64,000 nucleotides of DNA, from assembly GCF_003206615.1 (NCBI RefSeq), contig NZ_PZJW01000011.1, positions 79,784 through 143,783 of the forward strand, written 5' to 3'. The position numbers and the translations under genes were made by a program. Shown piece by piece: positions 730 through 13,969 of this stretch (positions are counted from its first letter, which is position 1; every line of letters begins with the position of its first letter). The notes below the pieces were generated by a model. It worked only from the letters and a program-made list of their open reading frames with translations, was not told the origin of the DNA and did not search any database. Origin of the DNA: Salinicola acroporae (GTDB lineage Bacteria; Pseudomonadota; Gammaproteobacteria; Pseudomonadales; Halomonadaceae).

Positions 730-1635
730 TCAGCGGGAAACGATGGCCGCCAGCGCCTCGTCCAGGGTGGGATAGCGGAAGGTGAAACCGGCTTCCTGCA
801 ACCGTCGCGGCAGCATGCAGGCGCCGGTCAGCAGCAGTCGGGACATCTCTCCCAGCCCGAGCTTCAGGAGCGGGGCCGGAACGCATAGCGCTGCGGGGCG
901 ATGCAGATGGCGCCCCATCGCACGGGTGAATTCGGCATTGGTCACCGGGTTGGGCGCCGAGCCGTTGAAAGCCCCACTTAACGCGGAGTCCTCGAGCAGG
1001 AATTCGATCGCGCCGACCAGATCCTCGCGATGGATCCACGGCATGTACTGCCGCCCGCTGCCGAGACGTCCGCCCAACCCCGCCTTGAACGCCGGCATCA
1101 TCTTGGCCAGCGTGCCGCCTCCGGCATCCAGCACCAGCCCGGTACGCAGGCAGACGACTCTCACCCCGAATGCTTCGGCCTTGACGGCTTCCGCTTCCCA
1201 GGCCCGACACAGGCGATGGGCGAACTCATCGTGAGGCGGGGTGTCCTCGGTCACTTCGCGGTCGCCCTGGTCGCCGTAGAACCCCATGGCCGAACCGGAG
1301 ACGAGCACCCGGGGTGCCTGCCCCTGCTGCGCCAGACGCTCGCACAGCGCGACGACATCCCGTGTGGCGTGTCGCCGCGATTCGACCAGCCGCGTCTTCT
1401 GGGGATCGCTCCAGCGCCGGTCGGCGATCGGTTCGCCGGCCAGATTGACGATGGCCTCGGGCGAGGAGGATGCGAAATCCGTGGCATCGTCGCCAATGCG
1501 GACGTCATGGGGAAGCCGCTGGCGAGCCCGCTCGGGATCTCGGGAAACCACCATCACCTCATGGCCGGCCACCAGGGCCCGCTCGATCAACCGTCGTCCG
1601 ACGAACCCCGTACCACCCGTGATCAACAAGCGCAT
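730..1635 (-). CDS. TIGR01777-family NAD(P)-dependent epimerase (YfcH-like)
   Basis: This 301-residue protein is an extended short-chain dehydrogenase. The N-terminal Rossmann motif is ITGGTGFVG, an S-A-M-G-F-Y-G segment corresponds to the active-site region, and the C-terminal ~60 residues look like the DUF1731 domain of this family. The substrate is unknown. I place the start at the ATG at 1635 because GGGAG lies 8 nt upstream; a GTG at 1644 is possible. Genes of this family often sit near phrB and MerR-type light regulators in Pseudomonas-like genomes (recalled). Here it is divergent from such a regulator, and a TTGTACAA site lies just upstream. Confidence 0.9.
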   Translation of the reverse strand: MRLLITGGTGFVGRRLIERALVAGHEVMVVSRDPERARQRLPHDVRIGDDATDFASSSPEAIVNLAGEPIADRRWSDPQKTRLVESRRHATRDVVALCERLAQQGQAPRVLVSGSAMGFYGDQGDREVTEDTPPHDEFAHRLCRAWEAEAVKAEAFGVRVVCLRTGLVLDAGGGTLAKMMPAFKAGLGGRLGSGRQYMPWIHREDLVGAIEFLLEDSALSGAFNGSAPNPVTNAEFTRAMGRHLHRPAALCVPAPLLKLGLGEMSRLLLTGACMLPRRLQEAGFTFRYPTLDEALAAIVSR

Positions 1636-1650
1636 GATCTTCACTCCCGG

Positions 1651-2022
1651 TCATACCGAAGTTGTACAATATTCACAGGTTAGCAGCCGGGGCGCTGGCA
1701 TGCGCTCGTCGATGCCAATCTGCTCCCCTCCTGGACTGGAAGCGGCCTGACGCCATCCGCCCCGATGCTTCCGGCATGCGGTACCAGCGAAGTCCGCTGG
1801 CGAGCGACCTTCGAGGCGGCGGAGCAGGATCTCCCGCCGCAGGTCACCCAACCCGCCATGCTCGCCGCCCTGGAACCGAGCGAGCCCTGCCTCCCAACTC
1901 ACTCGGAATCCGAACCGCCTAGCCGGCCCCCAAGGCATCGCCCGGCTCGTGCCCCTGCCGCCGTTCCTCGCAGCCTGCAGGAGCACGCTCCGGGCCAGCC
2001 CGAGCAGATCGCGCGGCGACAT
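1651..2022 (-). CDS. Possible small protein of unknown function upstream of the TIGR01777 gene
   Basis: An open frame of 123 codons starts at an ATG preceded by AGAGAGG four bases upstream and stops 15 bp before the TIGR01777 gene on the same strand, as expected for an operon partner. Its codon third positions are mostly G or C, as in neighbouring genes. The protein is Arg-, Gly- and Leu-rich; I recognise no domain, signal peptide or membrane segment. Its last codons overlap the TTGTACAA site at 1662-1669. It could be a real lineage-specific gene, a decayed gene, or a chance frame in GC-rich DNA. Confidence 0.3.
   Translation of the reverse strand: MSPRDLLGLARSVLLQAARNGGRGTSRAMPWGPARRFGFRVSWEAGLARFQGGEHGGLGDLRREILLRRLEGRSPADFAGTACRKHRGGWRQAASSPGGEQIGIDERMPAPRLLTCEYCTTSV
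1658..1672. promoter_or_regulatory. Half-site resembling the light-regulator operator
   Basis: GAAGTTGTACAATAT matches 12 of 15 bases of the left half of the operator candidate at 2135 (GATGTTGTACAAAAC). It lies 23 bp upstream of the ATG of the TIGR01777 gene. It is a single copy with the local palindrome TTGTACAA; no second half-site occurs 12 bp away. Confidence 0.4.
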
Positions 2023-2448
2023 CCGACCTCTCTGGATTGGTCCGACTCGGCCGGCCAGCCTCCTGCGTAATTACGGCGCTCGACACCATCGACGAATCGC
2101 GAACATCGCTTGGTCAGCCGCCACGCATTGCATCGATGTTGTACAAAACACTTGAACCGTACAACATCTTCACCCATCCTTGGAACATCGAGACTACATC
2201 CATCGTCTCGTCACGACTCGTCGAAGTCATCGGCTGCGTGGCGACCGGCGCCCAACCAGGGTGACGGTGACAAGGCATCAGGGCATCATTGCACGTTGAA
2301 ACCACTGCAAATTGAGAGGGTGCGGCCCCGACAGATGACCGCACCGATGTTCTGGACCGCTCTAGCCCGCGATGATGACTCGCTATATTGATATGGACCA
2401 ACCCATTCGACGAGACGGCGCACGCAGAGACCTCATGGGAGGACTTGC
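2023..2448. other. Intergenic region upstream of the MerR regulator
   Basis: About 430 bp without a convincing gene. It holds the inverted repeat at 2135-2168. Short frames on both strands here have no family resemblance or plausible codon pattern. A good ribosome-binding site (GGGAGGA) lies six bases before the MerR start at 2449. TATATT at 2383-2388 could be a -10 box, without a good -35 partner. Confidence 0.6.
2135..2168. promoter_or_regulatory. Perfect inverted repeat, candidate LitR/PplR-type light-response operator
   Basis: Arms GATGTTGTAC (2135-2144) and GTACAACATC (2159-2168) are perfect inverted repeats of 10 bp with a 14-bp spacer. The same bases can be read as TGTACA-N12-CGTACA, one mismatch from the direct-repeat consensus T(G/A)TACA-N12-TGTA(C/T)A that I recall for the class II LitR regulator PplR1 of Pseudomonas putida. 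TTGTAC at 2139-2144 could serve as a -35 box, so bound regulator would block a promoter. The site lies between the MerR gene and the minus-strand genes, where a shared divergent operator is expected. Confidence 0.6.
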
Positions 2449-3366
2449 ATGACTTATCAGGCAATGGATTCCAGTGCCGCGCCGCTCTACCCGATTCGTG
2501 AAGTATCGCGACTCACTGGAGTCAACTCCGTCACGCTACGCGCCTGGGAGCGACGCTACGGCTTGATTCGCCCCCAGCGGACGCCGAAGGGCCATCGCCT
2601 TTACGGACGCAACGACATCGAGCGCGTGGAGCGCATTCTGCAATGGCTCAACCGGGGCGTCCCGGTCAGCCAGGTGCGCGAGCTGCTCGACCAGCCCGAG
2701 ACCGTGGAGACGCCCGCTCCCCAGATGGGAGATTGGGCCAGCCAGCGTCAGCATGTGATTCAGGCCGTCGAAGCGCTGGACACCGGCCGACTGGAGGTGC
2801 TGTTCAATCAGAGCTTGTCGCTCTACCCGGTCGGCCTGTGCATCGCCGAGCTATGGCAGCCCGTCGTTTCCCAGCTCGAGGAACGCTGGGGAGACCAGTA
2901 CGGCGCCACACTACAGCGCCGCCTGCTGGAATCCTTCTTGCGCACCCGCATCGGGACGCGAATCTACCATGCCAACCAGTTGAGCAACGCAGGTACGGTA
3001 TTGGTAGCGCGGCTGCCGGATGACGATAGCGGATTCTGGTCCCTGTTGATGGGCCTGACGGCGTCGGCCTCGGGCTATCGCGTTCAGTTGATCGATGGAG
3101 AGATGCCGTTGAGCGAGTTTCCGCTCGCCGTCGAACGCCTCGACACCGAGGCGCTTCTGCTTGCCAGCGGCCACGCCGAGCGCAGCGACGTCATCCGCCG
3201 CCAGCTGCCGCGTCTGGCGGAACAGTGCGAGGCACCGGTGTGCCTGGTGGGCCCGGTGGCCCGCATTCGCGCCAGCGATCTCGAGAACACCGCCGTCGCC
3301 GTGCTGGGCGAAGACATGAGTCAGGCGTTGAGCCGGATGCGAGCGATGATCGACTCCCGCACCTGA
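2449..3366 (+). CDS. MerR-family transcriptional regulator, class II LitR-like (light response)
   Basis: A 305-residue protein with an N-terminal MerR winged helix-turn-helix (about residues 14-80, with the typical RAWERRYGL segment) and a C-terminal region shaped like the helical and B12-binding domains of CarH/LitR photoreceptors. The W-x9-EH cobalamin motif reads W147-x9-RR, and the position of the axial His motif (ExHxxG) reads DDDSGFW at 191-197. It therefore probably does not bind adenosylcobalamin, like class II LitR proteins, which I recall work with a separate LOV photosensor. It precedes phrB by 126 bp and is likely to repress it, the following genes and itself in the dark (inferred). 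Start chosen by GGGAGGA upstream of 2449. Confidence 0.85.
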   Translation: MTYQAMDSSAAPLYPIREVSRLTGVNSVTLRAWERRYGLIRPQRTPKGHRLYGRNDIERVERILQWLNRGVPVSQVRELLDQPETVETPAPQMGDWASQRQHVIQAVEALDTGRLEVLFNQSLSLYPVGLCIAELWQPVVSQLEERWGDQYGATLQRRLLESFLRTRIGTRIYHANQLSNAGTVLVARLPDDDSGFWSLLMGLTASASGYRVQLIDGEMPLSEFPLAVERLDTEALLLASGHAERSDVIRRQLPRLAEQCEAPVCLVGPVARIRASDLENTAVAVLGEDMSQALSRMRAMIDSRT

Positions 3367-3445
3367 CTGGTAGCGCCGGCCGGGAGCTCGCCGACATGAC
3401 CGGTACCGGGGGTGGCGGTGCCATTGCCACGCGGGCGGGCAGCAC

Positions 3446-3465
3446 ACGGCGCATGGATGCGCCGT
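3446..3465. other. Perfect 20-bp palindrome between the regulator and phrB
   Basis: ACGGCGCAT-GG-ATGCGCCGT has 9-bp perfect arms. The T-tract after it is too short for a normal Rho-independent terminator. It could be a weak attenuator or an operator. No TGTACA site lies in this 126-bp gap. Confidence 0.4.
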
Positions 3466-3492
3466 CCATTTACCGGTAACAGGGAAGTGCCC

Positions 3493-4929
3493 ATGTCAGC
3501 GACGCAACTGGTCTGGTTCCGCAATGACCTCAGGACTCTCGATCACACGGCGTTGAGCGCGGCGGCCATGAAAGGACCCGTGGTCGGCATCTATCTTGCC
3601 TGCAGGCAACAGTGGCGAAGCCATGGCCATGGCGCCAACAAGATATCGTTTCTGCATCGTGGCGTCATCGCGCTGGCGGAGGAGTTGAAAGCGCTCAACA
3701 TTCCGCTGCTGTATCGCGATATCGATGATTTCGATGCCGCCCCCGGGACACTGCTGGAGGCGGCTCGTCGAGTCGACGCCCAGGCGCTCCATTTCAATCG
3801 TGAGTATCCCCTCGACGAGCAGCGACGTGACGAACGGGTAACCGACGAGTTCACCCAGGCAGGTCTTGCCCTCTTCGACTACACCGACCACATCGCCTTC
3901 GAGCCAGGCGAGCTGCTGACCGGTCAGGATGAGTACTACAAGGTCTTCACGCCGTTCTCCAGAGCCTGGCATCAGCGCGTCGGTGCCGATCAACTGGCGC
4001 TGCGCGACACGCCCCGGCGTCAGGCCAAGCTGGCCATCGCCAGTGACCGGATTCCGGCGCTCGCCGAGCGGGACCGCTCCAACATCGTCTCCCCTGCACC
4101 GTCGAAGATCCAGGAGGCACCCTGGCCGGCGGGCCAGGAAGCGGCCGCCGATCGTCTGGCCGATTTTTTGCGGCAGCGGGCGCGCCGCTACAACGACGAT
4201 CGCGACTTTCCCGCCATTGCCGGTACCAGTGAACTCTCCGCCTACCTCGCTACCGGCATGATCTCTCACCGCCAGTGCCTGCAAGCGGTGATGGCCAACA
4301 ACGGTGGCCACCTGGCCGATGGGGACGCCGGCCTGGCGAGCTGGACCAATGAACTGGTCTGGCGCGAGTTCTATCAGCATATCGCGGTAGGTTTTCCCCG
4401 CGTCTGCCGCCACCGGCCCTTCAAGCTCGAGACCGACAAGTTGAACTGGCGCCACAGCGACAAGGATTTCGCAGCGTGGTGCGAAGGCCGTACCGGCTTT
4501 CCGCTGGTCGATGCCGCGATGCGCCAACTGGTCGCCACCGGCTGGATGCACAACCGGCTACGCATGGTGACGGCGATGTTCCTGAGCAAGCACCTGCTGC
4601 TCGACTGGCGCCGCGGCGAGGCCTTCTTCATGGAGCATCTGGTGGATGGCGATTTCGCTTCCAACAACGGCGGCTGGCAGTGGGCCGCATCGACCGGTAC
4701 CGATGCTTCGCCCTACTTCCGGATCTTCAACCCGACGACGCAGTCGCGGCGCTTCGATCCGGAGGCGACATTCATCGCCCAATGGCTTCCGGAGCTGGCC
4801 GATCTGCCGGCCAAGAACCGCCACGAACCCAGCGCGGAACAGCGCCACAAGACAGGCTATCCCCCGGCCATCGTCGACCACAAGTTCGCCAGAGAGCGGG
4901 CGCTCGAAGCGTTCAAGAATCTAGGCTGA
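3493..4929 (+). CDS. phrB: Deoxyribodipyrimidine photolyase (CPD photolyase)
   Basis: A 478-residue class I photolyase that splits cyclobutane pyrimidine dimers using blue light and FADH-. The N-terminal Rossmann-like antenna domain begins LVWFRNDLR. The C-terminal FAD domain holds the conserved stretches ELVWREFYQHI, ATGWMHNRLRM and GDFASNNGGWQW, followed by RIFNP. Length is close to E. coli PhrB (472 residues, recalled). The ATG at 3493 has AGGGAAG upstream; an in-frame start at 3412 would add residues with no family match. The gene follows a LitR-like regulator and is followed by genes for lipid modification, a common arrangement in light-induced or singlet-oxygen-induced operons. Confidence 0.96.
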   Translation: MSATQLVWFRNDLRTLDHTALSAAAMKGPVVGIYLACRQQWRSHGHGANKISFLHRGVIALAEELKALNIPLLYRDIDDFDAAPGTLLEAARRVDAQALHFNREYPLDEQRRDERVTDEFTQAGLALFDYTDHIAFEPGELLTGQDEYYKVFTPFSRAWHQRVGADQLALRDTPRRQAKLAIASDRIPALAERDRSNIVSPAPSKIQEAPWPAGQEAAADRLADFLRQRARRYNDDRDFPAIAGTSELSAYLATGMISHRQCLQAVMANNGGHLADGDAGLASWTNELVWREFYQHIAVGFPRVCRHRPFKLETDKLNWRHSDKDFAAWCEGRTGFPLVDAAMRQLVATGWMHNRLRMVTAMFLSKHLLLDWRRGEAFFMEHLVDGDFASNNGGWQWAASTGTDASPYFRIFNPTTQSRRFDPEATFIAQWLPELADLPAKNRHEPSAEQRHKTGYPPAIVDHKFARERALEAFKNLG

Positions 4930-4967
4930 TACCGACACGACGCCAATCACGATTCAGGAAGCCTCCA

Positions 4968-5408
4968 ATGACAGCACCCGAAGCGCCCACCATCGAATCG
5001 TTGACGCATTTCTGCACCCTCTTCCAGCCCCTGACGTCCAGCGGCTTGCCCGCCCTCGAAGAGTGCTACAGCGACGATGTCGATTTCGCCGACCCCCTGC
5101 ATCGCCACGTCGGCCGCGACAACCTGATGGCCTATTACGCCGACCTGATGGAAGGCGTCCGCCACTGCCATTTCGAATTCCATGACCGCCAACTCCTCGG
5201 TGCCACCAGTTTTTTGACCTGGACCATGGAGTTGGCGCATCCAAGGTTGCGTGGCGGACGTAACATCAGCGTGGCTGGCTGCTCCCACCTGCAGTGGCAG
5301 GGTCAACGGGTCTGCCGTCATCGCGATTACTTCGACGTCGGGGCCATGCTCTACGAACACCTGCCCGTGGTGGGATGGATGGTCAAGGGCGTCAAGAAGC
5401 GGCTCTGA
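4968..5408 (+). CDS. NTF2-like (SnoaL-like) family protein of the photolyase cluster
   Basis: A 146-residue protein with the cone-like NTF2 pattern: an N-terminal helix pair, then ECYSDDVDFADPLH, typical of the fold, and a C-terminal HRDYFDVGAMLYEHL motif. Many such proteins are small enzymes or ligand-binding accessories; no catalytic role can be assigned. It starts 38 bp after phrB, with AGGA in the gap, and precedes the short-chain dehydrogenase by 54 bp, so it is probably co-transcribed. Proteins of this kind recur in phrB-lipid clusters (recalled), suggesting they act on a lipid or its oxidation product. Confidence 0.8.
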   Translation: MTAPEAPTIESLTHFCTLFQPLTSSGLPALEECYSDDVDFADPLHRHVGRDNLMAYYADLMEGVRHCHFEFHDRQLLGATSFLTWTMELAHPRLRGGRNISVAGCSHLQWQGQRVCRHRDYFDVGAMLYEHLPVVGWMVKGVKKRL

Positions 5409-5462
5409 AGCATCGGCCACCACGACAGGCGATCGGTTTTTTCAAACCAAAGAGGAAGGGGC

Positions 5463-6251
5463 ATGGCGAGTCTCTCGGGAACCCGGCGAATCTGGCTGAC
5501 GGGGGCGACTTCGGGCATCGGCGAAGCCCTGGCCAAGCGGCTGCTCGCCGACGGTCATCGCGTCGCGTTGACCGCGCGCCGGGAAGAGGCGCTACGGCAG
5601 TTGGCGGAGGGATATGACAATGCGCTGGTGGTACCGGCCGATCTCACCGACCGTGACGCCACGCGTCGCGCCGGCAACGCCATCGACGATGCTTTCGGGG
5701 GTCTCGATATCGCCCTGCTCAATGCCGGCACCTGTGAATACCTCGATGTCGCCCGCTTCGATGTCGAGCTGGTCGGTAGAGTGTTCGCGACCAACTTCCA
5801 CGGCACGCTCCATGCCATCGATGCTGCGCTACCCTTGCTGCGGCAAGCCAGGGGCGGCCAGCGGCGACCGATACTGGCGGGCGTTTCCAGCGCAGCCGCC
5901 TACCTGCCGCTGCCGCGTGCGGAAGCCTATGGCGCCTCCAAGGCAGCGGTATCCCATTTCCTCGAATCCCTGCGCCTCGACCTCGACGCCGAATCGATCG
6001 ATGTCAGCGTGATTCATCCGGGCTTCGTCAAAACACCGCTGACCGAGCGCAACGACTTCTCGATGCCGATGCAGATCGAGGTGGATCAGGCCGCCGACTA
6101 CATCATCGACGGTCTCGAGCGAGGTCGGTTGGACATCCACTTTCCGCGTCGCTTCACGTTTCTGGTCAAGACGCTGGGCATTCTGCCGCCGGCACTACGG
6201 CGACGCGTCGGCCTGCGCATCGCCAACCGCCGCCGGGGAGAGTCGGCATGA
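5463..6251 (+). CDS. Short-chain dehydrogenase/reductase
   Basis: A 262-residue classical SDR. The cofactor motif TGATSGIG is at residues 13-20, NAG at 87-89, catalytic Ser at 142/143 and the YxxxK pair at Y156 and K160, so it should be an active NAD(P)H-dependent oxidoreductase. AGAGGAAGGGG precedes the ATG. Its stop overlaps the start of the FAD protein by four bases (ATGA), indicating translational coupling. The substrate is unknown; the context of an FAD oxidase and a lipid methyltransferase points to an acyl-chain or lipid-derived carbonyl. Confidence 0.92.
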   Translation: MASLSGTRRIWLTGATSGIGEALAKRLLADGHRVALTARREEALRQLAEGYDNALVVPADLTDRDATRRAGNAIDDAFGGLDIALLNAGTCEYLDVARFDVELVGRVFATNFHGTLHAIDAALPLLRQARGGQRRPILAGVSSAAAYLPLPRAEAYGASKAAVSHFLESLRLDLDAESIDVSVIHPGFVKTPLTERNDFSMPMQIEVDQAADYIIDGLERGRLDIHFPRRFTFLVKTLGILPPALRRRVGLRIANRRRGESA

Positions 6252-7576
6252 CCCCGCCTCCGCAGTGGATCGCCGTGGTCGGCAGCGGCATCGCCGGCAT
6301 GACCGCCGCCCACTATCTCTCCCGTCGCCATCACGTCTCGCTGTTCGAAGCCGACTCACGCCTGGGCGGCCACACAGCGACCTTCGATATCGATACCGGT
6401 GCCGAACGGCACGCCATCGATACCGGCTTCATCGTCTACAACGATCGTACCTATCCGCTCTTCGAGGCGCTAATGGCTTCGCTGGGCGTCCCGGGCCAGG
6501 CGACCGAGATGAGCTTCTCGGTCCACGAGAGCGACCGCGACTTCGAGTACAACGGCCACACCCTGACCAGCCTGTTCGCCCAGCGCCGCAACCTGTTGCG
6601 CCCGCGGTTCTATCGCCTGCTCAACGACATCGTCCGTTTCAACCGCCGGGCGACCCGTGATTTCCTGGCCGACCGCCTGTCGCCTTCACTGACCCTGGGC
6701 GACTATCTGGCCGGCGAGGATTACGGTGAAGATTTCCAGCGTCGCTACCTGCTGCCCATGGGCGGCGCCATCTGGTCCGCCAGCGAAGCTGGCATGCGTG
6801 ACTTCCCGGCCCGCTTCTTCGTGCGTTTCTTCCATCATCACGGTCTGCTGTCGCTGACCGACCGCCCCCAGTGGCACACCATCAAGGGAGGCTCGCGAGC
6901 CTACATCGCCCCGCTCACCGAGCCCTATCGCGAACGCATCCATCTCTCGACCCCCATCGTCGGCCTGGCCCGGAACGACGACGGTATCAGCCTCCACACG
7001 ACGGCCGGTGAACGGCGTTTCGACCAGGTCGTGCTCGCCTGCCACAGCGACCAGGCACTTTCCATTCTGGGCAACCAGGCGAGCCGTGCCGAGCGGGAGG
7101 TGTTGGGAGCCATCGGTTACCGTCGCAACAGCGTCGTGTTGCACACCGACACCGGCATGCTGCCGCGCCGCCGCCGGGCCTGGGCGAGCTGGAATTACCG
7201 CCTCGACGGCCGCGATGCAAAGGCGTGCGTACCCGTCACCTACAATATGAACATTCTCCAGCGGTTGAAAAGCGACACCACCTTCTGCGTAACGCTCAAC
7301 GACGAGCAGAGCATCGACCCGGCCCGCGTGCTGGGCCGCTACGAGTACGCCCATCCTCAGTTCACGCTCGCCGCGCAGCAGGCCCAGGCTCGCCACGGCG
7401 AGATATCTGGTGCTTCCCGACGCACCCATTTCTGCGGCGCCTACTGGCGCAACGGTTTCCACGAAGACGGCGTGTGGAGCGCGCTGCGCGTGGTCGAAGC
7501 GATCAACGGCAGCCGACCGTCACCCGCAGCGACAGCGCCCGCGGCAGATCACCAGGAAGGGATGCCATGCCATTGA
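6248..7576 (+). CDS. FAD-dependent oxidoreductase (amine-oxidase-like, NAD_binding_8)
   Basis: A 442-residue flavoprotein. GSGIAG at residues 12-17 and the acidic residue E34 form the FAD-binding beta-alpha-beta unit; GGH at 40-42 and DTGFIVYN at 58-65 are typical of the group found beside DUF1365 and cyclopropane-synthase-like genes. A C-terminal FCGAYWRNGFHEDGV segment resembles the second FAD-contact motif. In Rhodobacter a comparable gene group takes part in the singlet-oxygen response and furan fatty acid synthesis (recalled); by analogy this enzyme may desaturate or oxidise a phospholipid acyl chain. It overlaps both neighbours, by 4 and 10 bases. Confidence 0.9.
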   Translation: MTPPPQWIAVVGSGIAGMTAAHYLSRRHHVSLFEADSRLGGHTATFDIDTGAERHAIDTGFIVYNDRTYPLFEALMASLGVPGQATEMSFSVHESDRDFEYNGHTLTSLFAQRRNLLRPRFYRLLNDIVRFNRRATRDFLADRLSPSLTLGDYLAGEDYGEDFQRRYLLPMGGAIWSASEAGMRDFPARFFVRFFHHHGLLSLTDRPQWHTIKGGSRAYIAPLTEPYRERIHLSTPIVGLARNDDGISLHTTAGERRFDQVVLACHSDQALSILGNQASRAEREVLGAIGYRRNSVVLHTDTGMLPRRRRAWASWNYRLDGRDAKACVPVTYNMNILQRLKSDTTFCVTLNDEQSIDPARVLGRYEYAHPQFTLAAQQAQARHGEISGASRRTHFCGAYWRNGFHEDGVWSALRVVEAINGSRPSPAATAPAADHQEGMPCH

Positions 7577-8337
7577 ACGATGCCTGTCCCCACAGTCGTC
7601 TCGCCGTGGGCCATCTGCGCCACCGGCGCTTCCTGCCGCGCTGGCACGCCTTCGATTATCGCGTGTGGATGCTGTGGCTGGATCTCGATGAGCTGCCGGC
7701 GCTGCTGGCGCGAACGCCAGGTTTCGGCACTCGGCGTGGCGCGCTGGCCCGCTTTCGTCGCGAGGACTATCTGGCGCCGCATGACCTGCCGCTCGCCGAC
7801 GCTGTCCGGGCGCGCCTCAGGGAGGAACTGGGCAGCGCTCCGACCGGCCCGATCCGCATGCTCAGCCAGGTCCGGCTGTTCGGCATGCTGTTCAATCCGT
7901 TGACGCTCTATTACGCCTACGATGACGAGGAGAGGCTTCAGGCGGTTCTCGGTGAAGTCACCAACACGCCATGGCGCGAGCGCCAGGTCTACGCCTGCCG
8001 GGTCGACCCGACGCGCCACACGCAGCAGGCCGCATTCGACAAGCGCCTGCACGTCTCGCCCTTCAATCCGATGCAAATGCGTTACCACTGGCGCTTCAAC
8101 TCGCCGGACGCGCGCCTGCTGATGCACATGGAGACATGGCACCAGGACGCGCGCCATTTCGATGCCACGCTGACACTCACGCTCCAGCCAGCGACGCAAG
8201 GCGCGCTGGTGATGGAGCTGGTCAAGCATCCCGGCATGACGCTCAAGACCATCGTCACCATTCACTGGCAGGCGCTCAGACTCTGGCTCAAGCGCACGCC
8301 GATCCACGACCATCCCGGACGGGAGACTTCGTCATGA
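7567..8337 (+). CDS. DUF1365 family protein
   Basis: A 256-residue protein with typical DUF1365 segments: an N-terminal GHLRHRRFLPRWHAFDYRVW, a central LFGMLFNPLTLYYAY, and a KRLHVSPFNPMQMRYHW stretch. The function of the family is not established; it almost always sits between an amine-oxidase-like flavoprotein and a cyclopropane-synthase-like methyltransferase, as here. The ATG at 7567 lies inside the end of the FAD gene with AGGAAGGG upstream. The stop overlaps the next start by four bases. Confidence 0.92.
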   Translation: MPLNDACPHSRLAVGHLRHRRFLPRWHAFDYRVWMLWLDLDELPALLARTPGFGTRRGALARFRREDYLAPHDLPLADAVRARLREELGSAPTGPIRMLSQVRLFGMLFNPLTLYYAYDDEERLQAVLGEVTNTPWRERQVYACRVDPTRHTQQAAFDKRLHVSPFNPMQMRYHWRFNSPDARLLMHMETWHQDARHFDATLTLTLQPATQGALVMELVKHPGMTLKTIVTIHWQALRLWLKRTPIHDHPGRETSS

Positions 8338-9611
8338 CAGCCGCCCGATCACCCTCCACTCACCCCGCCGCGGACGCACCGAGGCTGTCACGCTGGCTGC
8401 GCCTCCGCATGCTCAAGGCGCTGGAAGACCTGGAGGGCGGCAGGCTGACGCTGCGCGAACGAGATAGCGTCCACCACTTGGGGCGTGGCGATACTGGCTC
8501 ATCGACGGTCCATGTCGATATCACCATCCATGATCCGAACGTGTGGCGCCGCTTCGCCCTGGGCGGCACCGTCGGCGTCGCGGAAGCCTATATGGATGGC
8601 GCCTGGGAGGTCGACGATCTGGTCGGCCTGGTTCGTCTGTTCGCGCGCAACATCGAGCGCGTCAACGATGGCATGGAAAACGGCACCGCACGCCTGCGCC
8701 GCTGGGCCTTGACGGCGCTTCACGCTCTCCAGCGCAATACCACGCGGCGCTCTCGGCGCCATATCGCGGCCCACTACGATCTGGGCAACGAGCTGTTCGC
8801 GACGTTCCTGGATCGGGAGCACTGGATGTACTCGAGCGCGGTGTTTCCGCGCGCGGAGGCCACGCTGGAGGAGGCGTCGACACATAAGCTCGATCTCATT
8901 CTCGACAAGCTCGCGATCGAACCGCACCACCATCTGCTGGAGATCGGCACCGGGTGGGGCGGACTGGCGATCCACGCGGCCAGGACGCGAGGTTGCCGCG
9001 TCACCACCACCACCATCTCGGAAGAGCAGTACGCCTTTACCGCCGAACGTGTCCGCGAGGCCGGACTGGCGGACCGCGTCACTCTGCTGAAGGACGATTA
9101 CCGGGACCTGGAGGGTCGCTTCGATCGGCTGGTCTCAGTGGAGATGGTGGAAGCCGTCGGTCATCAGTACCTGGGGACTTATTTCGCCTGCATCGACCGA
9201 CTGCTGAAGCCGGACGGCCTGGCGCTGCTCCAGTGCATCACCATTCGCGATCAACGCTTCGAAACCGCCAAGCGCGAGATGGACTTCATCAAGCGCTATA
9301 TCTTTCCGGGCGGCTTCCTGCCTTCCCATACGGCGCTGCTCAACGGACTGAGCCGGCACACCCAGCTCAATCTGCTCGACCTGGACGAGATCGGACTGCA
9401 CTACGCCCGCACGCTGCGGGAATGGCGCCTGCGCTTCGAATCCCGTCTCGACGAGGTGCGTGCACTGGGCTACGACGAGCGCTTCATTCGCATGTGGCGC
9501 TACTATCTCTGTTACTGCGAAGGTGGCTTCCTGGAACGAACCATCGGCACCAGTCATCTGCTGCTGGCCAAACCGGAAGCCAGGCGCGCGCCCCTCACCG
9601 GTAGCGTGTAG
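8334..9611 (+). CDS. Cyclopropane-fatty-acid-synthase-like SAM methyltransferase (UfaM/CfaA type)
   Basis: A 425-residue protein with an N-terminal helical domain and a class I SAM-dependent methyltransferase domain; HYDLGN is at 147-152 and the SAM motif EIGTGWGG at 203-210. Compared with E. coli Cfa as I recall it, bicarbonate ligand Cys139 is replaced by Ser168 (YSSAVF) and His266 by Gln300 (LLQCI), while the Glu equivalent (E273) stays. It is thus probably not an ordinary cyclopropane synthase; a methylating enzyme such as UfaM of furan fatty acid synthesis fits better. It would act on unsaturated phospholipid acyl chains at the inner membrane. It overlaps DUF1365 by four bases. Confidence 0.88.
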   Translation: MTAARSPSTHPAADAPRLSRWLRLRMLKALEDLEGGRLTLRERDSVHHLGRGDTGSSTVHVDITIHDPNVWRRFALGGTVGVAEAYMDGAWEVDDLVGLVRLFARNIERVNDGMENGTARLRRWALTALHALQRNTTRRSRRHIAAHYDLGNELFATFLDREHWMYSSAVFPRAEATLEEASTHKLDLILDKLAIEPHHHLLEIGTGWGGLAIHAARTRGCRVTTTTISEEQYAFTAERVREAGLADRVTLLKDDYRDLEGRFDRLVSVEMVEAVGHQYLGTYFACIDRLLKPDGLALLQCITIRDQRFETAKREMDFIKRYIFPGGFLPSHTALLNGLSRHTQLNLLDLDEIGLHYARTLREWRLRFESRLDEVRALGYDERFIRMWRYYLCYCEGGFLERTIGTSHLLLAKPEARRAPLTGSV

Positions 9612-9621
9612 CCGTCGACCG

Positions 9622-10164
9622 ATGAGGGTCATGACCCGCGGTGGAGCGCTCGCCGTCAATACCCTGCTGTTCCAGGGCGGCTGGTTTCTCTGCGTGCTCG
9701 GCGGCTCGCCCTGGGCCATCGTCGCGACCCCACTCATCCTTCTCGTTCACTGGCGCTGGCTGGCACGGCCGGGCGAGTGGCGTTGGTGGCTGGGGTTGCT
9801 GCTGGTCGGCATCGTCGTCGATGGCAGCCTGGTCGTCGCCGGCGGCATCGAGATGGAAGGGAGTCTTCCCATCTGGCTATGGGCGCTCTGGCCGCTCTTC
9901 GCCACGACACTCCATCACTGCCTGTCCTGGCTGTGGCGCTACCGAATCCTGGCTATCACCTGCGGGGCCCTGGGCGGGCCGCTGAGCTATCTCTCGGGGG
10001 CGGCGCTGGCCGGAGTCGAGATTCGTTCCTGGGCGCTCGCTATCGAAGCGATCGTCTGGGCCGGTCTCTGCGCTGGCCTGGCTCAGCATCTCGGCAGTCG
10101 ACGAGCGCCCGGGCACCGCCGACCGGCAGCCGGCTTGAGCCGGGACGACGCCGATCAGGAATAG
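9622..10164 (+). CDS. DUF2878 family membrane protein
   Basis: A 180-residue protein with about five hydrophobic segments across residues 10-155 and a basic C-terminal tail, matching DUF2878, a family of unknown function found at the end of cyclopropane-synthase-like operons. The start is ATG 9622 or 9631; no strong ribosome-binding site separates them. It begins 10 bp after the methyltransferase and is probably the last gene of the cluster, because a minus-strand gene ends at 10155 and overlaps its 3' end by 10 bp. The DUF3833 partner often found in related clusters (recalled) is absent. Confidence 0.75.
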   Translation: MRVMTRGGALAVNTLLFQGGWFLCVLGGSPWAIVATPLILLVHWRWLARPGEWRWWLGLLLVGIVVDGSLVVAGGIEMEGSLPIWLWALWPLFATTLHHCLSWLWRYRILAITCGALGGPLSYLSGAALAGVEIRSWALAIEAIVWAGLCAGLAQHLGSRRAPGHRRPAAGLSRDDADQE

Positions 10165-11990
10165 ACGCTGGTGACCGATTGGCGTAGTCGCGTTTCGACC
10201 TCGCCGGCAGGCTGCGGCCGCGCGTAGAGATATCCCTGCACATGGCGACATCCTCTTGCCAGCAGGAAATCGCGCTGCTCGGCGGTTTCCACGCCCTCGG
10301 CAATGACATCCAGGTTCAGGCCCTGCGCCATCGCCAGCACCGCCGAGGTGATCGCCGCGTCGGCGTGGTCGTGGGGCAGCGCACGAATGAACTCCCGGTC
10401 GAGCTTGAGCTTATCGACCGGTAGACGCTTGAGATAGGCCATCGACGAGTAGCCGGTACCAAAATCGTCGATGGCGATCTGCAGCCCTTCACGCCGCAGC
10501 GCTTCCAGCCGCGGCGAAATGTCGCCGGCGCGCTCGTCGAGAAGCACCGACTCGGTCAGCTCGAGGCCGAGCAGCCGCGCCGGCACCCGGTACTGGTTCA
10601 GCGTCGAGATCAAGTGGGCCTCGAGGTCGCCCTGAATCAGTTGCAGCGCCGACAGATTGACCCACACGGGCAGCACGCTCAGCCCCTGGCTTCGCCAGGT
10701 CGCCAGTTGGGCCACAGCCTGCTCGATGACCCAACTGCCCAGCGCGGGCATCAGCCCGTGGCGCTCGGCCAGCGGAATGAATTCGTTGGGCAGGATCAGG
10801 CCGTGTTCGGGATGGTGCCAGCGCAGCAACGCTTCCATTCCCACCATGCCGCCATCGTCGAGACGATGCTGGGTCTGGTAGTAGAGTTCGAGTTGCGCCC
10901 CCTGGGCCAGGGCCTGGCGCAGCTCATTGAGGATGATCAGGTGGCGGTCGGACTCGATCTCGAGGGAGGGGCGGAAACGCCGGTCATGGTTGCGCCCGTG
11001 TCGCTTGGCGCTGTAGAGGGCGGACTCGAGCCGCTGGAACAGGACGTTGGGGTCATTGCCGTCCTCGGGGGCGCGACAGCTGCCGATGGTCAAGCCCAGG
11101 TGCAGCGAGTTGTCGTCGATCTCGAAGGGTTCGCTCAGGTGATGGCGCAGGCTGGCAACCCACTTTTCGTGGTCGTCGAAGGTGGTGGTGCGGATGACCA
11201 TGAACTCATCACCCCCCAGCCGCCCGACGATGCCACCGGCCACCTGCGCCGCCAAGCGCTGGCCGAAGCGCGACAGCAGACGATCCCCGCTATCGACGCC
11301 GAGACTGTCGTTGATCGCCTTGAAGGCGTCGATATCGACCAGTGCCAGATCCAGACCTTCTCCCGCGCGCAAGTGGCGCAGGCGCGAGGCCAGCAGATCG
11401 TGCAGGCGCCGCCGGTTGGGCAGGCCGGTCAGCGGATCTTCGAAGCCGATGCGACGAAGATCCTGTTCGCGCGCCTTGTGTCGGCTGATATCGGTGAACA
11501 GGCCGACGTAGTGGGACACCCGTCCCTTGCGATCATGGCAAGCCTGGACCCGCAGCCACTCGGGGTACTGGTCGCCATGCTTGCGCTGGTTCCAGACCTC
11601 GCCTTCCCAGCGACCGGTGGTCTTCAACGTCTGCCAATAGCGGTCGTAGAAGGCCTTGTCGTGGCGCCCGGAGGAGAGCGAAGAGGGGTTGAGCCCGCGA
11701 ACCTCCTCGGGGGTATAGCCTGTGATCTGGGTAAAGGCAGGATTGACGGTGACAATGCGGTTGGCGGTGTCGGTGATCATCACGCCATCCGGCGACAGCT
11801 CGAGGGCCTGCTCGCTGAGGCGGCGACGCTGATGCTCCAGCCGAATCTGGCGCCAGACGTCGGCGACCCCCACCATGACCAGGGCCAGCGCCACCAGCCG
11901 CAGCGTCAGCAACGGCAATACGCTAGCGGCAGCCAGTGCCGCTAGGCCCAACCAGGTCAGCGGTCGATTCAGCGTGAAGGAAGGCCACAT
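10155..11990 (-). CDS. Membrane-bound PAS-GGDEF-EAL cyclic-di-GMP enzyme
   Basis: A 611-residue protein. Two hydrophobic segments (about residues 10-46) anchor it, a PAS domain follows (about 60-170), then GGDEF (about 185-340) and EAL (about 355-600). The GGDEF motif is intact and no RxxD inhibitory site stands five residues before it. The EAL domain keeps MEALLRW, VNLSA, LTES, IDDFGTGYS, LKLD, AEGVET and QGY, so both synthase and phosphodiesterase activities look possible. I chose ATG 11990, just before the membrane segments; upstream in-frame codons to 12119 are Arg-rich and unlike the family. It may set c-di-GMP levels for the pga operon further right, but no direct link is visible. Confidence 0.92.
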   Translation of the reverse strand: MWPSFTLNRPLTWLGLAALAAASVLPLLTLRLVALALVMVGVADVWRQIRLEHQRRRLSEQALELSPDGVMITDTANRIVTVNPAFTQITGYTPEEVRGLNPSSLSSGRHDKAFYDRYWQTLKTTGRWEGEVWNQRKHGDQYPEWLRVQACHDRKGRVSHYVGLFTDISRHKAREQDLRRIGFEDPLTGLPNRRRLHDLLASRLRHLRAGEGLDLALVDIDAFKAINDSLGVDSGDRLLSRFGQRLAAQVAGGIVGRLGGDEFMVIRTTTFDDHEKWVASLRHHLSEPFEIDDNSLHLGLTIGSCRAPEDGNDPNVLFQRLESALYSAKRHGRNHDRRFRPSLEIESDRHLIILNELRQALAQGAQLELYYQTQHRLDDGGMVGMEALLRWHHPEHGLILPNEFIPLAERHGLMPALGSWVIEQAVAQLATWRSQGLSVLPVWVNLSALQLIQGDLEAHLISTLNQYRVPARLLGLELTESVLLDERAGDISPRLEALRREGLQIAIDDFGTGYSSMAYLKRLPVDKLKLDREFIRALPHDHADAAITSAVLAMAQGLNLDVIAEGVETAEQRDFLLARGCRHVQGYLYARPQPAGEVETRLRQSVTSVYS

Positions 11991-12222
11991 AAGATGTCGT
12001 TTATCGTCGTTATGGTTTGCCTGGCGGCTATCGGATAGATTCCGTTCCCGTCCCGCATCATGCCCCGGCGACGTTCGCCAGGGCAAGCGCCGCGGGGCCC
12101 ATTGCACCCTGGTTCGCACGAGACTAGGCTTTGGCCGGCGTGCATTCAGCGTCCGCAGCCTTTAGACTGGCCGCGCCTCGGGATGACGAGGCAAACTCTT
12201 CTTCGATTCTCGGAACGATCCA

Positions 12223-12738
12223 GTGACCAGACAGCACTCTTTCAGCCAAGACGATCTGCTGAGATGCAGCCGGGGGGAACTGTTCGGCCCCGGCAACGCC
12301 CAACTGCCAGCGCCCAACATGCTGATGCTCGACCGCATCACGCAGATCAACGAGGATGGCGGCAAGTACCACAAGGGCGAGATCATCGCCGAGCTGGATA
12401 TCCATCCCGACCTGTGGTTCTTCCAGTGCCATTTCCCGGGCGATCCGGTGATGCCGGGCTGCCTGGGCCTGGACGCCATGTGGCAGCTGGTGGGTTTTCA
12501 CCTCGGCTGGCTGGGGAATCCCGGTCGCGGCCGGGCACTGGGCTGCGGCGAGGTCAAGTTCTCCGGACAGATCCTGCCGAGCGCCGGTCAGGTGTCGTAC
12601 CACATCGAGATCAAGCGCGTGATCACGCGTCGCCTAGTGCTCGGCATCGCCGACGGCACGCTGTCGGTCGACGGCCAGGATATCTACCAGGCCAAGGACT
12701 TGCGCGTCGGTCTGTTCACTAACACTGAGAAATTCTGA
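12223..12738 (+). CDS. fabA: 3-hydroxydecanoyl-ACP dehydratase/isomerase FabA
   Basis: A 171-residue hot-dog-fold enzyme that dehydrates 3-hydroxydecanoyl-ACP and isomerises the trans-2 to the cis-3 double bond, the branch point of anaerobic unsaturated fatty acid synthesis in the cytoplasm. The catalytic His70 ([10 protein letters not shown]) and Asp84 (GLDAMWQ) stand at the same numbers as in E. coli FabA. The start is a GTG at 12223 with GGAACG upstream; no ATG fits. It lies 13 bp before fabB, forming the usual fabAB operon. Confidence 0.97.
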
Positions 12739-12751
12739 GCGGGAGGCTTCC

Positions 12752-13969
12752 ATGAAACGAGTGGTAGTCACCGGCCTGGGTATCGTTTCCTGTCTGGGCA
12801 ACGACGCCCAACAGGTGCTCGACTCTCTGCGCCAGGGGCGTTCCGGCATTCGCTTCAAGCCGGAATATGCCGAACTCGGCTTTCGTAGCCAGGTCGCCGG
12901 TGTCGTCGACATCGACATCGAGTCTCTTGTCGATCGCAAGCAACTGCGCTTCATGGGGGACGCGGCGGCCTATGCCTATATCGCCATGCAGCAGGCGATC
13001 GACGATGCCGGGCTCGACGCCAGCGATATCTCCAATCCTCGCACCGGCCTGATCGCCGGCTCCGGCGGCGCATCCAGCGCCAACCAGGTCGAAGCGGCCG
13101 ATGTGATGCGCGAGAAGGGCCTGCGCCGCGTCGGCCCTTACCGGGTCACCCGGACCATGGGCAGCACGGTTTCCGCCTGCCTGGCGACACCGTTCCAGAT
13201 CAAGGGCGTCAACTACTCCATCTCCTCCGCCTGCGCCACCTCGGCGCACTGTATCGGCAGCGCCGTCGAGCAGATCCAGCTCGGTAAGCAGGATGTCGTG
13301 TTCGCCGGTGGCGGCGAAGAGGAGCACTGGACGCTGTCGTGCCTGTTCGATGCCATGGGCGCCTTGACCACGCACTACAACGACACGCCGGAAAAGGCCT
13401 CGCGTCCCTACGACGTGGACCGCGACGGATTCATCATCGCCGGCGGGGGGGGCATGCTGGTGATCGAGGAACTGGAGCACGCCAAGGCCCGCGGCGCCAG
13501 GATCTACGCAGAGGTCACCGGCTACGGTGCGACATCCGACGGTCACGACATGGTCGCCCCCTCCGGCGAAGGCGCGGCACGCTGCATGCGTCAGGCGCTC
13601 GCCGGGCTGGAAGGCAAGGTCGACTACGTCAACACCCACGGCACCTCGACGCCGGTGGGCGATGTCGCCGAACTCAAGGCGATCCGTGAGGTCTTCGGCG
13701 ACAGCACGCCGGCAATGAGCTCGACCAAGTCGCTGACCGGTCACTCGCTGGGCGCCACCGGCGTCCAGGAAGCGATCTATTCGTTGCTGATGATGGAGAA
13801 CCGCTTCATCTGCGCCTCGGCCAACATCGATACGCTCGACGAACAGGCCAGCGGGTTCGACATCGTCCGCCAGCGTCGTGACGACGTCGACATCCGGCGC
13901 GTGCTCTCCAACAGCTTCGGCTTCGGCGGCACCAATGCCTGCCTGGTGCTGGATCGCTACGAGAGCTGA
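12752..13969 (+). CDS. fabB: 3-oxoacyl-ACP synthase I FabB
   Basis: A 405-residue condensing enzyme that elongates cis-3-decenoyl-ACP and so commits the chain to unsaturated fatty acids. The Cys-His-His triad is Cys161 (SSACATSAH), His296 ([11 protein letters not shown]) and His331 ([10 protein letters not shown]), and the C-terminal [10 protein letters not shown] loop is present. GGGAGG precedes the ATG. It is co-transcribed with fabA and ends 25 bp before a strong terminator. The membrane unsaturation produced here would supply substrate to the lipid methyltransferase at 8334. Confidence 0.98.

What the first reader, a model, noticed from the sequence alone, without database searches (positions are those of the whole stretch)
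1651..10164. Candidate light/photo-oxidative stress module linking DNA repair to membrane lipid remodelling
A class II LitR-like regulator, phrB, an NTF2-like protein, an SDR, an FAD oxidoreductase, DUF1365, a cyclopropane-synthase-like methyltransferase and DUF2878 lie in one array, most of them overlapping or closely spaced, with a TIGR01777 gene divergent. Comparable gene sets are known under sigma-E/ChrR in Rhodobacter and under PplR1 in Pseudomonas putida (both recalled). Here the set is under a MerR-type regulator, and the jobs of the NTF2-like, DUF1365 and DUF2878 proteins are undefined. Several uncharacterised steps of one lipid pathway may be encoded together.
Basis: partly seen in the sequence, partly recalled or inferred. 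Interest (0 to 1): 0.72.

Follow-up and report, generated by a model that had tools for sequence, protein, structure and literature searches.

The report
Light-switched furan-lipid and photolyase operon
This stretch of a Salinicola-like genome holds a DNA photolyase gene and a complete three-gene set related to known furan-fatty-acid enzymes, behind a conserved operator-like site of a light-type regulator, so the cell is predicted to repair DNA and make protective furan lipids when blue light arrives; it is a known kind of system in a new host.

Summary
The array is real and ordered as described. It is a relative of the light-inducible pplR1/pmlR1 cluster of Pseudomonas, and much of its 'undefined' core is defined: FAD oxidoreductase = UfaD-like, DUF1365 = UfaO-like, CMAS = UfaM-like, the furan-fatty-acid set (PMC7380195). 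New here: (1) a LitR-type operator (11 of 12) at 2140-2163, conserved before litR in 19 of 32 family loci against 5 other sites in 480 kb; (2) a short-LOV gene elsewhere in the genome; in 61 family genomes LOV never occurs without LitR (48/7/0/6); (3) ufaD-ufaO-ufaM contiguous in 79 of 80 named loci and 36 of 40 unnamed ones; (4) MerR-type and sigma/ChrR-type regulators stand beside the core in 18 and 40 of 107 loci, never both; (5) UfaO is modelled as a beta-barrel, and diene + O2 -> furan + H2O balances without a reductant; (6) the NTF2-like protein has an isomerase/epoxide-hydrolase fold but lacks two recalled hydrolase residues. Light induction, lipid product and LitR-LOV contact are untested in this organism. 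New member of a known kind; SDR, NTF2-like, DUF2878 and TIGR01777 proteins lack proven jobs.

The parts
730..1644 (-). TIGR01777/SDR39U1-type oxidoreductase, divergent from the array
   Evidence: NCBIfam TIGR01777 331.1 bits, over cut-off; present in 31 of 32 family loci, drawn on the opposite strand before litR
1663..1668 (.). TGTACA half-site just upstream of the TIGR01777 gene
   Evidence: read; TGTACA upstream of this gene in 17 of 44 sequences against 2.0% of random pieces of the loci and 3.1% of shuffles
1747..2067 (+). decayed remnant of a cbiX-like gene
   Evidence: tblastn with the cbiX-like frame of locus L066: E 6e-21, 42% over 107 aa; longer frames in other family loci
2140..2163 (.). 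predicted LitR operator, T(G/A)TACA-N12-TGTACA type, 11 of 12
   Evidence: only place scoring 11 or more in the 64 kb window; a site at the like place in 19 of 32 family loci
2449..3366 (+). litR: MerR/CarH-like regulator without a detectable B12-binding domain
3493..4929 (+). phrB: deoxyribodipyrimidine photolyase
   Evidence: NCBIfam PRK10674 528.9 bits, cut-off 506
4968..5408 (+). SnoaL_2/NTF2-like protein, isomerase/epoxide-hydrolase fold
5463..6251 (+). short-chain dehydrogenase
   Evidence: Pfam adh_short 1.2e-39
6248..7576 (+). ufaD-like FAD oxidoreductase, predicted desaturase of methyl-branched acyl chains
   Evidence: Pfam Amino_oxidase; adjacent upstream of ufaO in 16 of 16, 40 of 40 and 79 of 80 loci that have ufaO
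7567..8337 (+). ufaO-like DUF1365 protein, predicted furan-forming oxygenase
   Evidence: Pfam 3.9e-77; single match in the genome; model
8334..9611 (+). ufaM-like SAM-dependent acyl methyltransferase
   Evidence: Pfam CMAS 9.9e-82; a better-scoring CMAS gene lies elsewhere in the genome
9622..10164 (+). DUF2878 protein, predicted membrane protein
   Evidence: Pfam 2.6e-28; no conserved His or Cys in 32 sequences

Best explanation
The array 2449-10164 is a Salinicola-type relative of the pplR1/pmlR1 cluster: it encodes a LitR-like regulator, a photolyase and contiguous homologues of ufaD, ufaO and ufaM behind a LitR-type operator-like site, and it is predicted to be opened by blue light and likely to build methylated furan fatty acids in membrane phospholipids. 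Likely steps: in the dark LitR would sit on 2140-2163 and block the promoter (inferred from PmlR2). Blue light would convert the short-LOV protein encoded elsewhere in the genome (L006:1408-1875), which would bind LitR and release the DNA (inferred). PhrB would then repair UV damage. UfaM would methylate cis-vaccenoyl chains, UfaD would make the conjugated diene and UfaO would add O2 and close the furan ring (reported for the Rhodobacter and Rhodopseudomonas proteins, inferred here); the furan would be consumed by singlet oxygen. The SDR and the NTF2-like protein most likely work on oxidised or intermediate acyl chains, and DUF2878 in the membrane beside them (inference, weak).
For: Families and order. 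Operator: one place of 11/12 in the window; 19 of 32 family loci have a site of 11 or more within 350 nt before litR, against 5 other sites in 480,032 bases; 7 of 13 named Halomonadaceae loci likewise (in L137 two overlapping sites tie, one being the operator). Photoreceptor: 155-aa single-domain LOV with the DCRFLQ motif, E 3.6e-61 to a solved 'sensory box protein' and 1.5e-54 to 3sw1 (that these are Pseudomonas short LOV proteins is recalled). LOV and LitR co-occur: 48 both, 7 LitR only, 0 LOV only, 6 neither, Fisher p 3.1e-5 without correction for relatedness. No ChrR-type cupin at E 0.001 in the genome. Papers: PMC7380195 (abstract, sections 8 and 10, passages), PMC9758184 (abstract, sections 3 and 15, part 1 of 3 of section 4), PMC12089945 (abstract, section 13: Halomonas ufaM in E. 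coli gave 11-methyloctadec-12-enoate).
Against: No expression or lipid data for this genome. No site of 11 or more in 13 of 32 family loci, nor in 6 of 13 named ones. Genome-wide the pattern with one mismatch hits 4 places and its backward control about as often. Seven family genomes have LitR without a short LOV, one in the same genus (G027). Sixteen of 32 family loci have no ufa set near litR, so lipid synthesis is not a fixed part. The consensus scan found no sigma-70 promoter in 1600-10300, and 285 nt lie between site and litR start. Rhodobacter and Rhodopseudomonas sequences were not compared directly.
Confidence: 0.82

Rival explanations
1. The lipid part stops before the furan: the UfaM and UfaD homologues would make methyl-branched, diene or cyclopropane chains, and DUF1365 would do something else here.
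For: Three of 34 diverse DUF1365 proteins beside ufaD lack the otherwise conserved His162; cyclopropane chains were also detected in E. coli with Halomonas ufaM (PMC12089945, section 13).
Against: UfaD, UfaO and UfaM are contiguous in 79 of 80 and 36 of 40 loci; the genome has a separate better-scoring CMAS gene; UfaO homologues of two genera are required for the furan (PMC7380195).
Confidence: 0.1
2. The switch is not light through LOV but another signal: LitR would respond to redox or flavin state, and light would act only through reactive oxygen.
For: Seven LitR-bearing family genomes lack the short LOV; in Aeromonas salmonicida genes of a like cluster (NTF2-like, SDR, FAD, DUF1365, cfa, DUF2878) are lower with added riboflavin (PMC10012899, passages); Vibrio cholerae uses MerR and ChrR under blue light and the authors point to reactive oxygen (PMC5241685, passages and section 8).
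Against: In Pseudomonas mendocina lit PmSB-LOV inhibits DNA binding by PmlR2 in the Biacore assay, though a gel shift showed a DNA-bound complex (PMC9758184); LOV never occurs without LitR in 61 genomes.
Confidence: 0.12
3. The genes are neighbours by accident of genome order and are not one unit.
For: Gaps of 126, 38 and 54 nt separate the first four genes; half of the family loci lack the ufa set.
Against: Overlapping or nearly touching frames from SDR to DUF2878; the same order in many genera; the Pseudomonas counterpart is likely one light-induced unit (PMC9758184).
Confidence: 0.03

Closest known systems
pmlR1 / pplR1 cluster of Pseudomonas mendocina and P. putida (PMC9758184)
   Same: LitR-type regulator, phrB, SDR, FAD oxidoreductase, ufaM and hypothetical genes together, light-induced; operator T(G/A)TACA-N12-TGTACA; short LOV in the genome
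   Different: Here litR stands first; the unit there starts with PME6650, whose counterpart I did not look for; a decayed cbiX lies upstream; the LOV gene is unlinked. PplR/PmlR sequences were not compared directly
UfaM-UfaD-UfaO furan fatty acid pathway of Rhodobacter sphaeroides and Rhodopseudomonas palustris (PMC7380195)
   Same: Same three protein families by the paper's description; order D-O-M as the R. palustris numbers run (RPA2571-2569)
   Different: In Rhodobacter the genes answer to ChrR and ufaM lies apart; product unproven here
Halomonas sp. YLGW01 ufa genes (PMC12089945)
   Same: Halomonas is a relative; three consecutive ufa genes, UfaM active in E. coli
   Different: Regulation and the rest of the array are not treated in the section read
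MerR/ChrR blue-light response of Vibrio cholerae and the VC1123 (DUF2878) gene (PMC5241685, PMC12971978)
   Same: VC1122 cyclopropane-synthase-like gene induced by blue light; DUF2878 gene VC1123 annotated in the regulon of a MerR-family PhrR
   Different: MerR and phr genes (VCA0056-0057) lie apart from VC1122-1123; ChrR also acts there; no ChrR found here

Membership tests
Furan fatty acid pathway (UfaM/UfaD/UfaO) | All three protein families present and contiguous | tested here: met
Furan fatty acid pathway (UfaM/UfaD/UfaO) | UfaM distinct from the canonical cyclopropane synthase | tested here: inconclusive
   a better-scoring CMAS gene exists elsewhere in the genome; no tree was made
Furan fatty acid pathway (UfaM/UfaD/UfaO) | Sequence identity to the Rhodobacter enzymes | not tested
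   their sequences were not in my loci
Furan fatty acid pathway (UfaM/UfaD/UfaO) | Furan fatty acid made | not testable with these tools
   needs lipid analysis
Class II LitR (PplR/PmlR) | MerR DNA-binding domain, CarH-like body | tested here: met
   MerR_1 7.8e-19; NCBIfam CarH 2.6e-29, under its cut-off; CarH chain 5c8d 9.6e-20
Class II LitR (PplR/PmlR) | No B12-binding domain | tested here: met
   no such Pfam match at E up to 10
Class II LitR (PplR/PmlR) | Four-helix B12-binding_2 domain kept | tested here: inconclusive
   no Pfam match at E up to 10, yet the CarH model aligns across residues 13-271
Class II LitR (PplR/PmlR) | Operator T(G/A)TACA-N12-TGTACA at its own unit | tested here: met
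   11 of 12 positions; binding not tested
Short LOV photoreceptor | Single LOV domain with the photoactive cysteine, no effector domain | tested here: met
   155 aa, DCRFLQ, E 3.6e-61; PAS domains only in Pfam above cut-off
Sigma-E/ChrR control | ChrR-type cupin anti-sigma factor in the genome | tested here: not met
   PF12973: 0 matches at E 0.001
Limonene-1,2-epoxide hydrolase (for the NTF2-like protein) | Catalytic Asp-Arg-Asp set (recalled) | tested here: not met
   last-strand Asp (D120) kept; the other two positions align with W85 and M87
Nitrobindin/calycin barrels (for UfaO) | Same fold | tested here: inconclusive

The most novel reading that the evidence does not exclude
UfaO is a new kind of oxygenase: a calycin-like beta-barrel that takes a methylated conjugated diene and O2 and gives furan plus water with no outside electron donor, through an internal peroxide or epoxide, while the neighbouring NTF2-like protein opens, isomerises or closes that intermediate at the membrane. 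The sum C19H34O2 + O2 = C19H32O3 + H2O balances, which would explain why no reductant had to be added in the published assay.
Probability: 0.2. Interest if true: 0.65.

Novelty: new member of a known kind. Interest (0 to 1): 0.34.

Why it matters
It would put the Pseudomonas light switch (LitR plus short LOV) and furan lipid synthesis together in Halomonadaceae, with an operator-like site and a photoreceptor gene that can be tested at once. It also narrows the open question of the UfaO cofactor: the conserved residues, the predicted barrel and the balanced reaction suggest what to measure.

Full report
What is there. The nine genes were checked against Pfam and NCBIfam. The array ends against a convergent PAS-GGDEF-EAL gene; a FabA-domain gene and a ketoacyl-synthase gene follow at 12223 and 12752. 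The nearest named locus is from Salinicola lusitanus (UfaO 98%).

What the lipid genes are. DUF1365 is the domain of UfaO. In Rhodobacter sphaeroides and Rhodopseudomonas palustris UfaM, UfaD and UfaO are needed for the furan fatty acid 9M5-FuFA, and O2 is the source of the furan oxygen (PMC7380195; abstract, sections 8 and 10 and passages read). In Halomonas sp. YLGW01 the three genes are consecutive and UfaM gave 11-methyloctadec-12-enoate in E. coli (PMC12089945, section 13). In Chlamydomonas two CFA genes and a DUF1365 gene are induced by singlet oxygen (PMC4067076, passages). In my loci ufaD, ufaO and ufaM are contiguous in 79 of 80 named loci (the best 80 of 585 relatives, themselves from a capped list), in 36 of 40 unnamed class loci (40 fetched of the 67 other genomes with a match; 68 of 229 with the own one) and in all 16 of 32 family loci that have ufaO. 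The exceptions are L168 (no ufaD found) and L083, L108, L112, L117 (no ufaM adjacent). The named loci were found through UfaO, and named and unnamed sets may share species. DUF1365 has a single match in this genome, and a separate CMAS gene scores better than the window's, which fits a canonical cyclopropane synthase beside a UfaM; no tree was made.

The switch. The consensus T(G/A)TACA-N12-TGTACA is taken from PMC9758184. The window has one place with 11 or more of 12 (2140-2163). The whole genome has four places with at most one mismatch, two of them palindromic; the backward control pattern gave about as many hits, so the count alone says little and position and conservation carry the argument. 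In 32 family loci (fetched of 58 genomes with a LitR match, of 61 searched) 19 have a site of 11 or more within 350 nt before the litR match, while 5 further such sites exist in 480,032 bases, two of them before TIGR01777 and three in L125. Thirteen of 32 have none. The aligned sites often share a TTG in the spacer and a CATCCT-like stretch 17 nt on (by eye); a promoter there is inference, and the consensus scan found none. Upstream of the divergent TIGR01777 gene TGTACA occurs in 17 of 44 sequences against 2.0% of random pieces of the same loci and 3.1% of base shuffles of the same upstream pieces, so that gene may share the regulator. Relatedness of the sequences is not corrected in these counts.

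The photoreceptor. PAS_9 finds 14 places in the genome. The best lies in a 155-aa single-domain protein (L006:1408-1875) with the DCRFLQ motif, closest to solved 'sensory box' LOV proteins (3.6e-61). In 61 family genomes a LitR match at 1e-36 or better is in 55 and a LOV match at 1e-50 or better in 48; both 48, LitR only 7, LOV only 0, neither 6; Fisher p 3.1e-5, not corrected for relatedness, thresholds set after seeing the lists. In P. mendocina lit PmSB-LOV takes PmlR2 off DNA in Biacore and lifts its repression in vitro, although a gel shift showed a DNA-bound complex (PMC9758184; abstract, sections 3 and 15, part 1 of 3 of section 4). The window's LitR shows no B12 domain, so a LOV partner is the likely sensor. 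The class II label stays open because the B12-binding_2 domain was not detected.

Swapping of regulators. Of 107 loci outside Halomonadaceae (40 unnamed and 67 of the 80 named; the 13 Halomonadaceae loci dropped) a MerR-type gene like LitR is near in 18, an ECF sigma or ChrR gene in 40 (27 with both of these), MerR-type together with ECF/ChrR in 0, neither in 49. Of the 18, ten match the window's LitR with 150 bits or more; five match at only 24-25% identity, and L114 and L216 by short stretches, so some may be other MerR proteins. ECF, ChrR, desaturase, DUF1295 and DUF3833 are named from one representative each. Photolyase is near in 26, NTF2-like in 23, SDR in 35, DUF2878 in 37, a fatty acid desaturase in 49. 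Loci shorter than 16 kb (24 of 107) lower these counts. In the 32 family loci TIGR01777 is present in 31, phr in 28, NTF2-like in 16, SDR in 16, DUF2878 in 12. So the regulator-photolyase-TIGR01777 core is steadier than the lipid set.

The upstream spacer. Relatives carry a FAD oxidoreductase and/or a cbiX-like gene between TIGR01777 and litR (names by eye). In the window 1747-2067 is a decayed cbiX remnant (E 6e-21); loci L063-L065 and L137 show only pieces.

Verdict. A well-formed new member of a known light-controlled photolyase and furan-lipid cluster. Shown: gene content, order, conservation of the operator-like site in part of the family, LOV-LitR co-occurrence, contiguity of the ufa core. 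Inferred: light induction, LOV action, furan product, roles of SDR, NTF2-like, DUF2878 and TIGR01777. Full-text searches for UfaO, DUF1365, DUF2878 and LitR/LOV with Halomonas or Salinicola listed no paper on a LitR-LOV-ufa link in Halomonadaceae; the lists are capped (for example 20 of 1,292, 10 of 51), only titles and abstract starts were seen there, and most subscription journals are not covered.

Noticed in passing
window 1747-2067: Decayed cbiX-like remnant between the TIGR01777 gene and litR; longer frames in several relatives.
   Followed up: partly
window 10155-12119 (-): PAS-GGDEF-EAL protein gene convergent with the array, its stop overlapping the DUF2878 end by 10 nt.
   Followed up: partly
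window 12223-13969: FabA-domain gene and ketoacyl-synthase gene 2 kb after the array; could supply unsaturated chains (the link is a guess).
   Followed up: no
L135:9520-9543 (G000:C12:579519): Second palindromic LitR-type site in the genome, between a chemoreceptor-like gene and a small gene without Pfam match.
   Followed up: partly
L063, L066 (same genus): Two relatives in the genus keep TIGR01777 and litR but show no lipid set nearby; L066 also shows no phr and its genome no short LOV.
   Followed up: no
window 2164-2448: About 240-300 nt between operator-like site and litR in this genus, against about 50-175 nt in the other family loci that have the site; no function known.
   Followed up: no
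L172, L178, L182, L186, L188, L190, L193, L212, L214: DUF2878 stands about 1.1-1.2 kb before a second CMAS paralogue in nine named loci, a hint of a role beside acyl methyltransferases.
   Followed up: no
plasmid collection: DUF1365 relatives match in 94 plasmid-collection records, 76 predicted non-mobilizable; some records are chromosome-sized.
   Followed up: no
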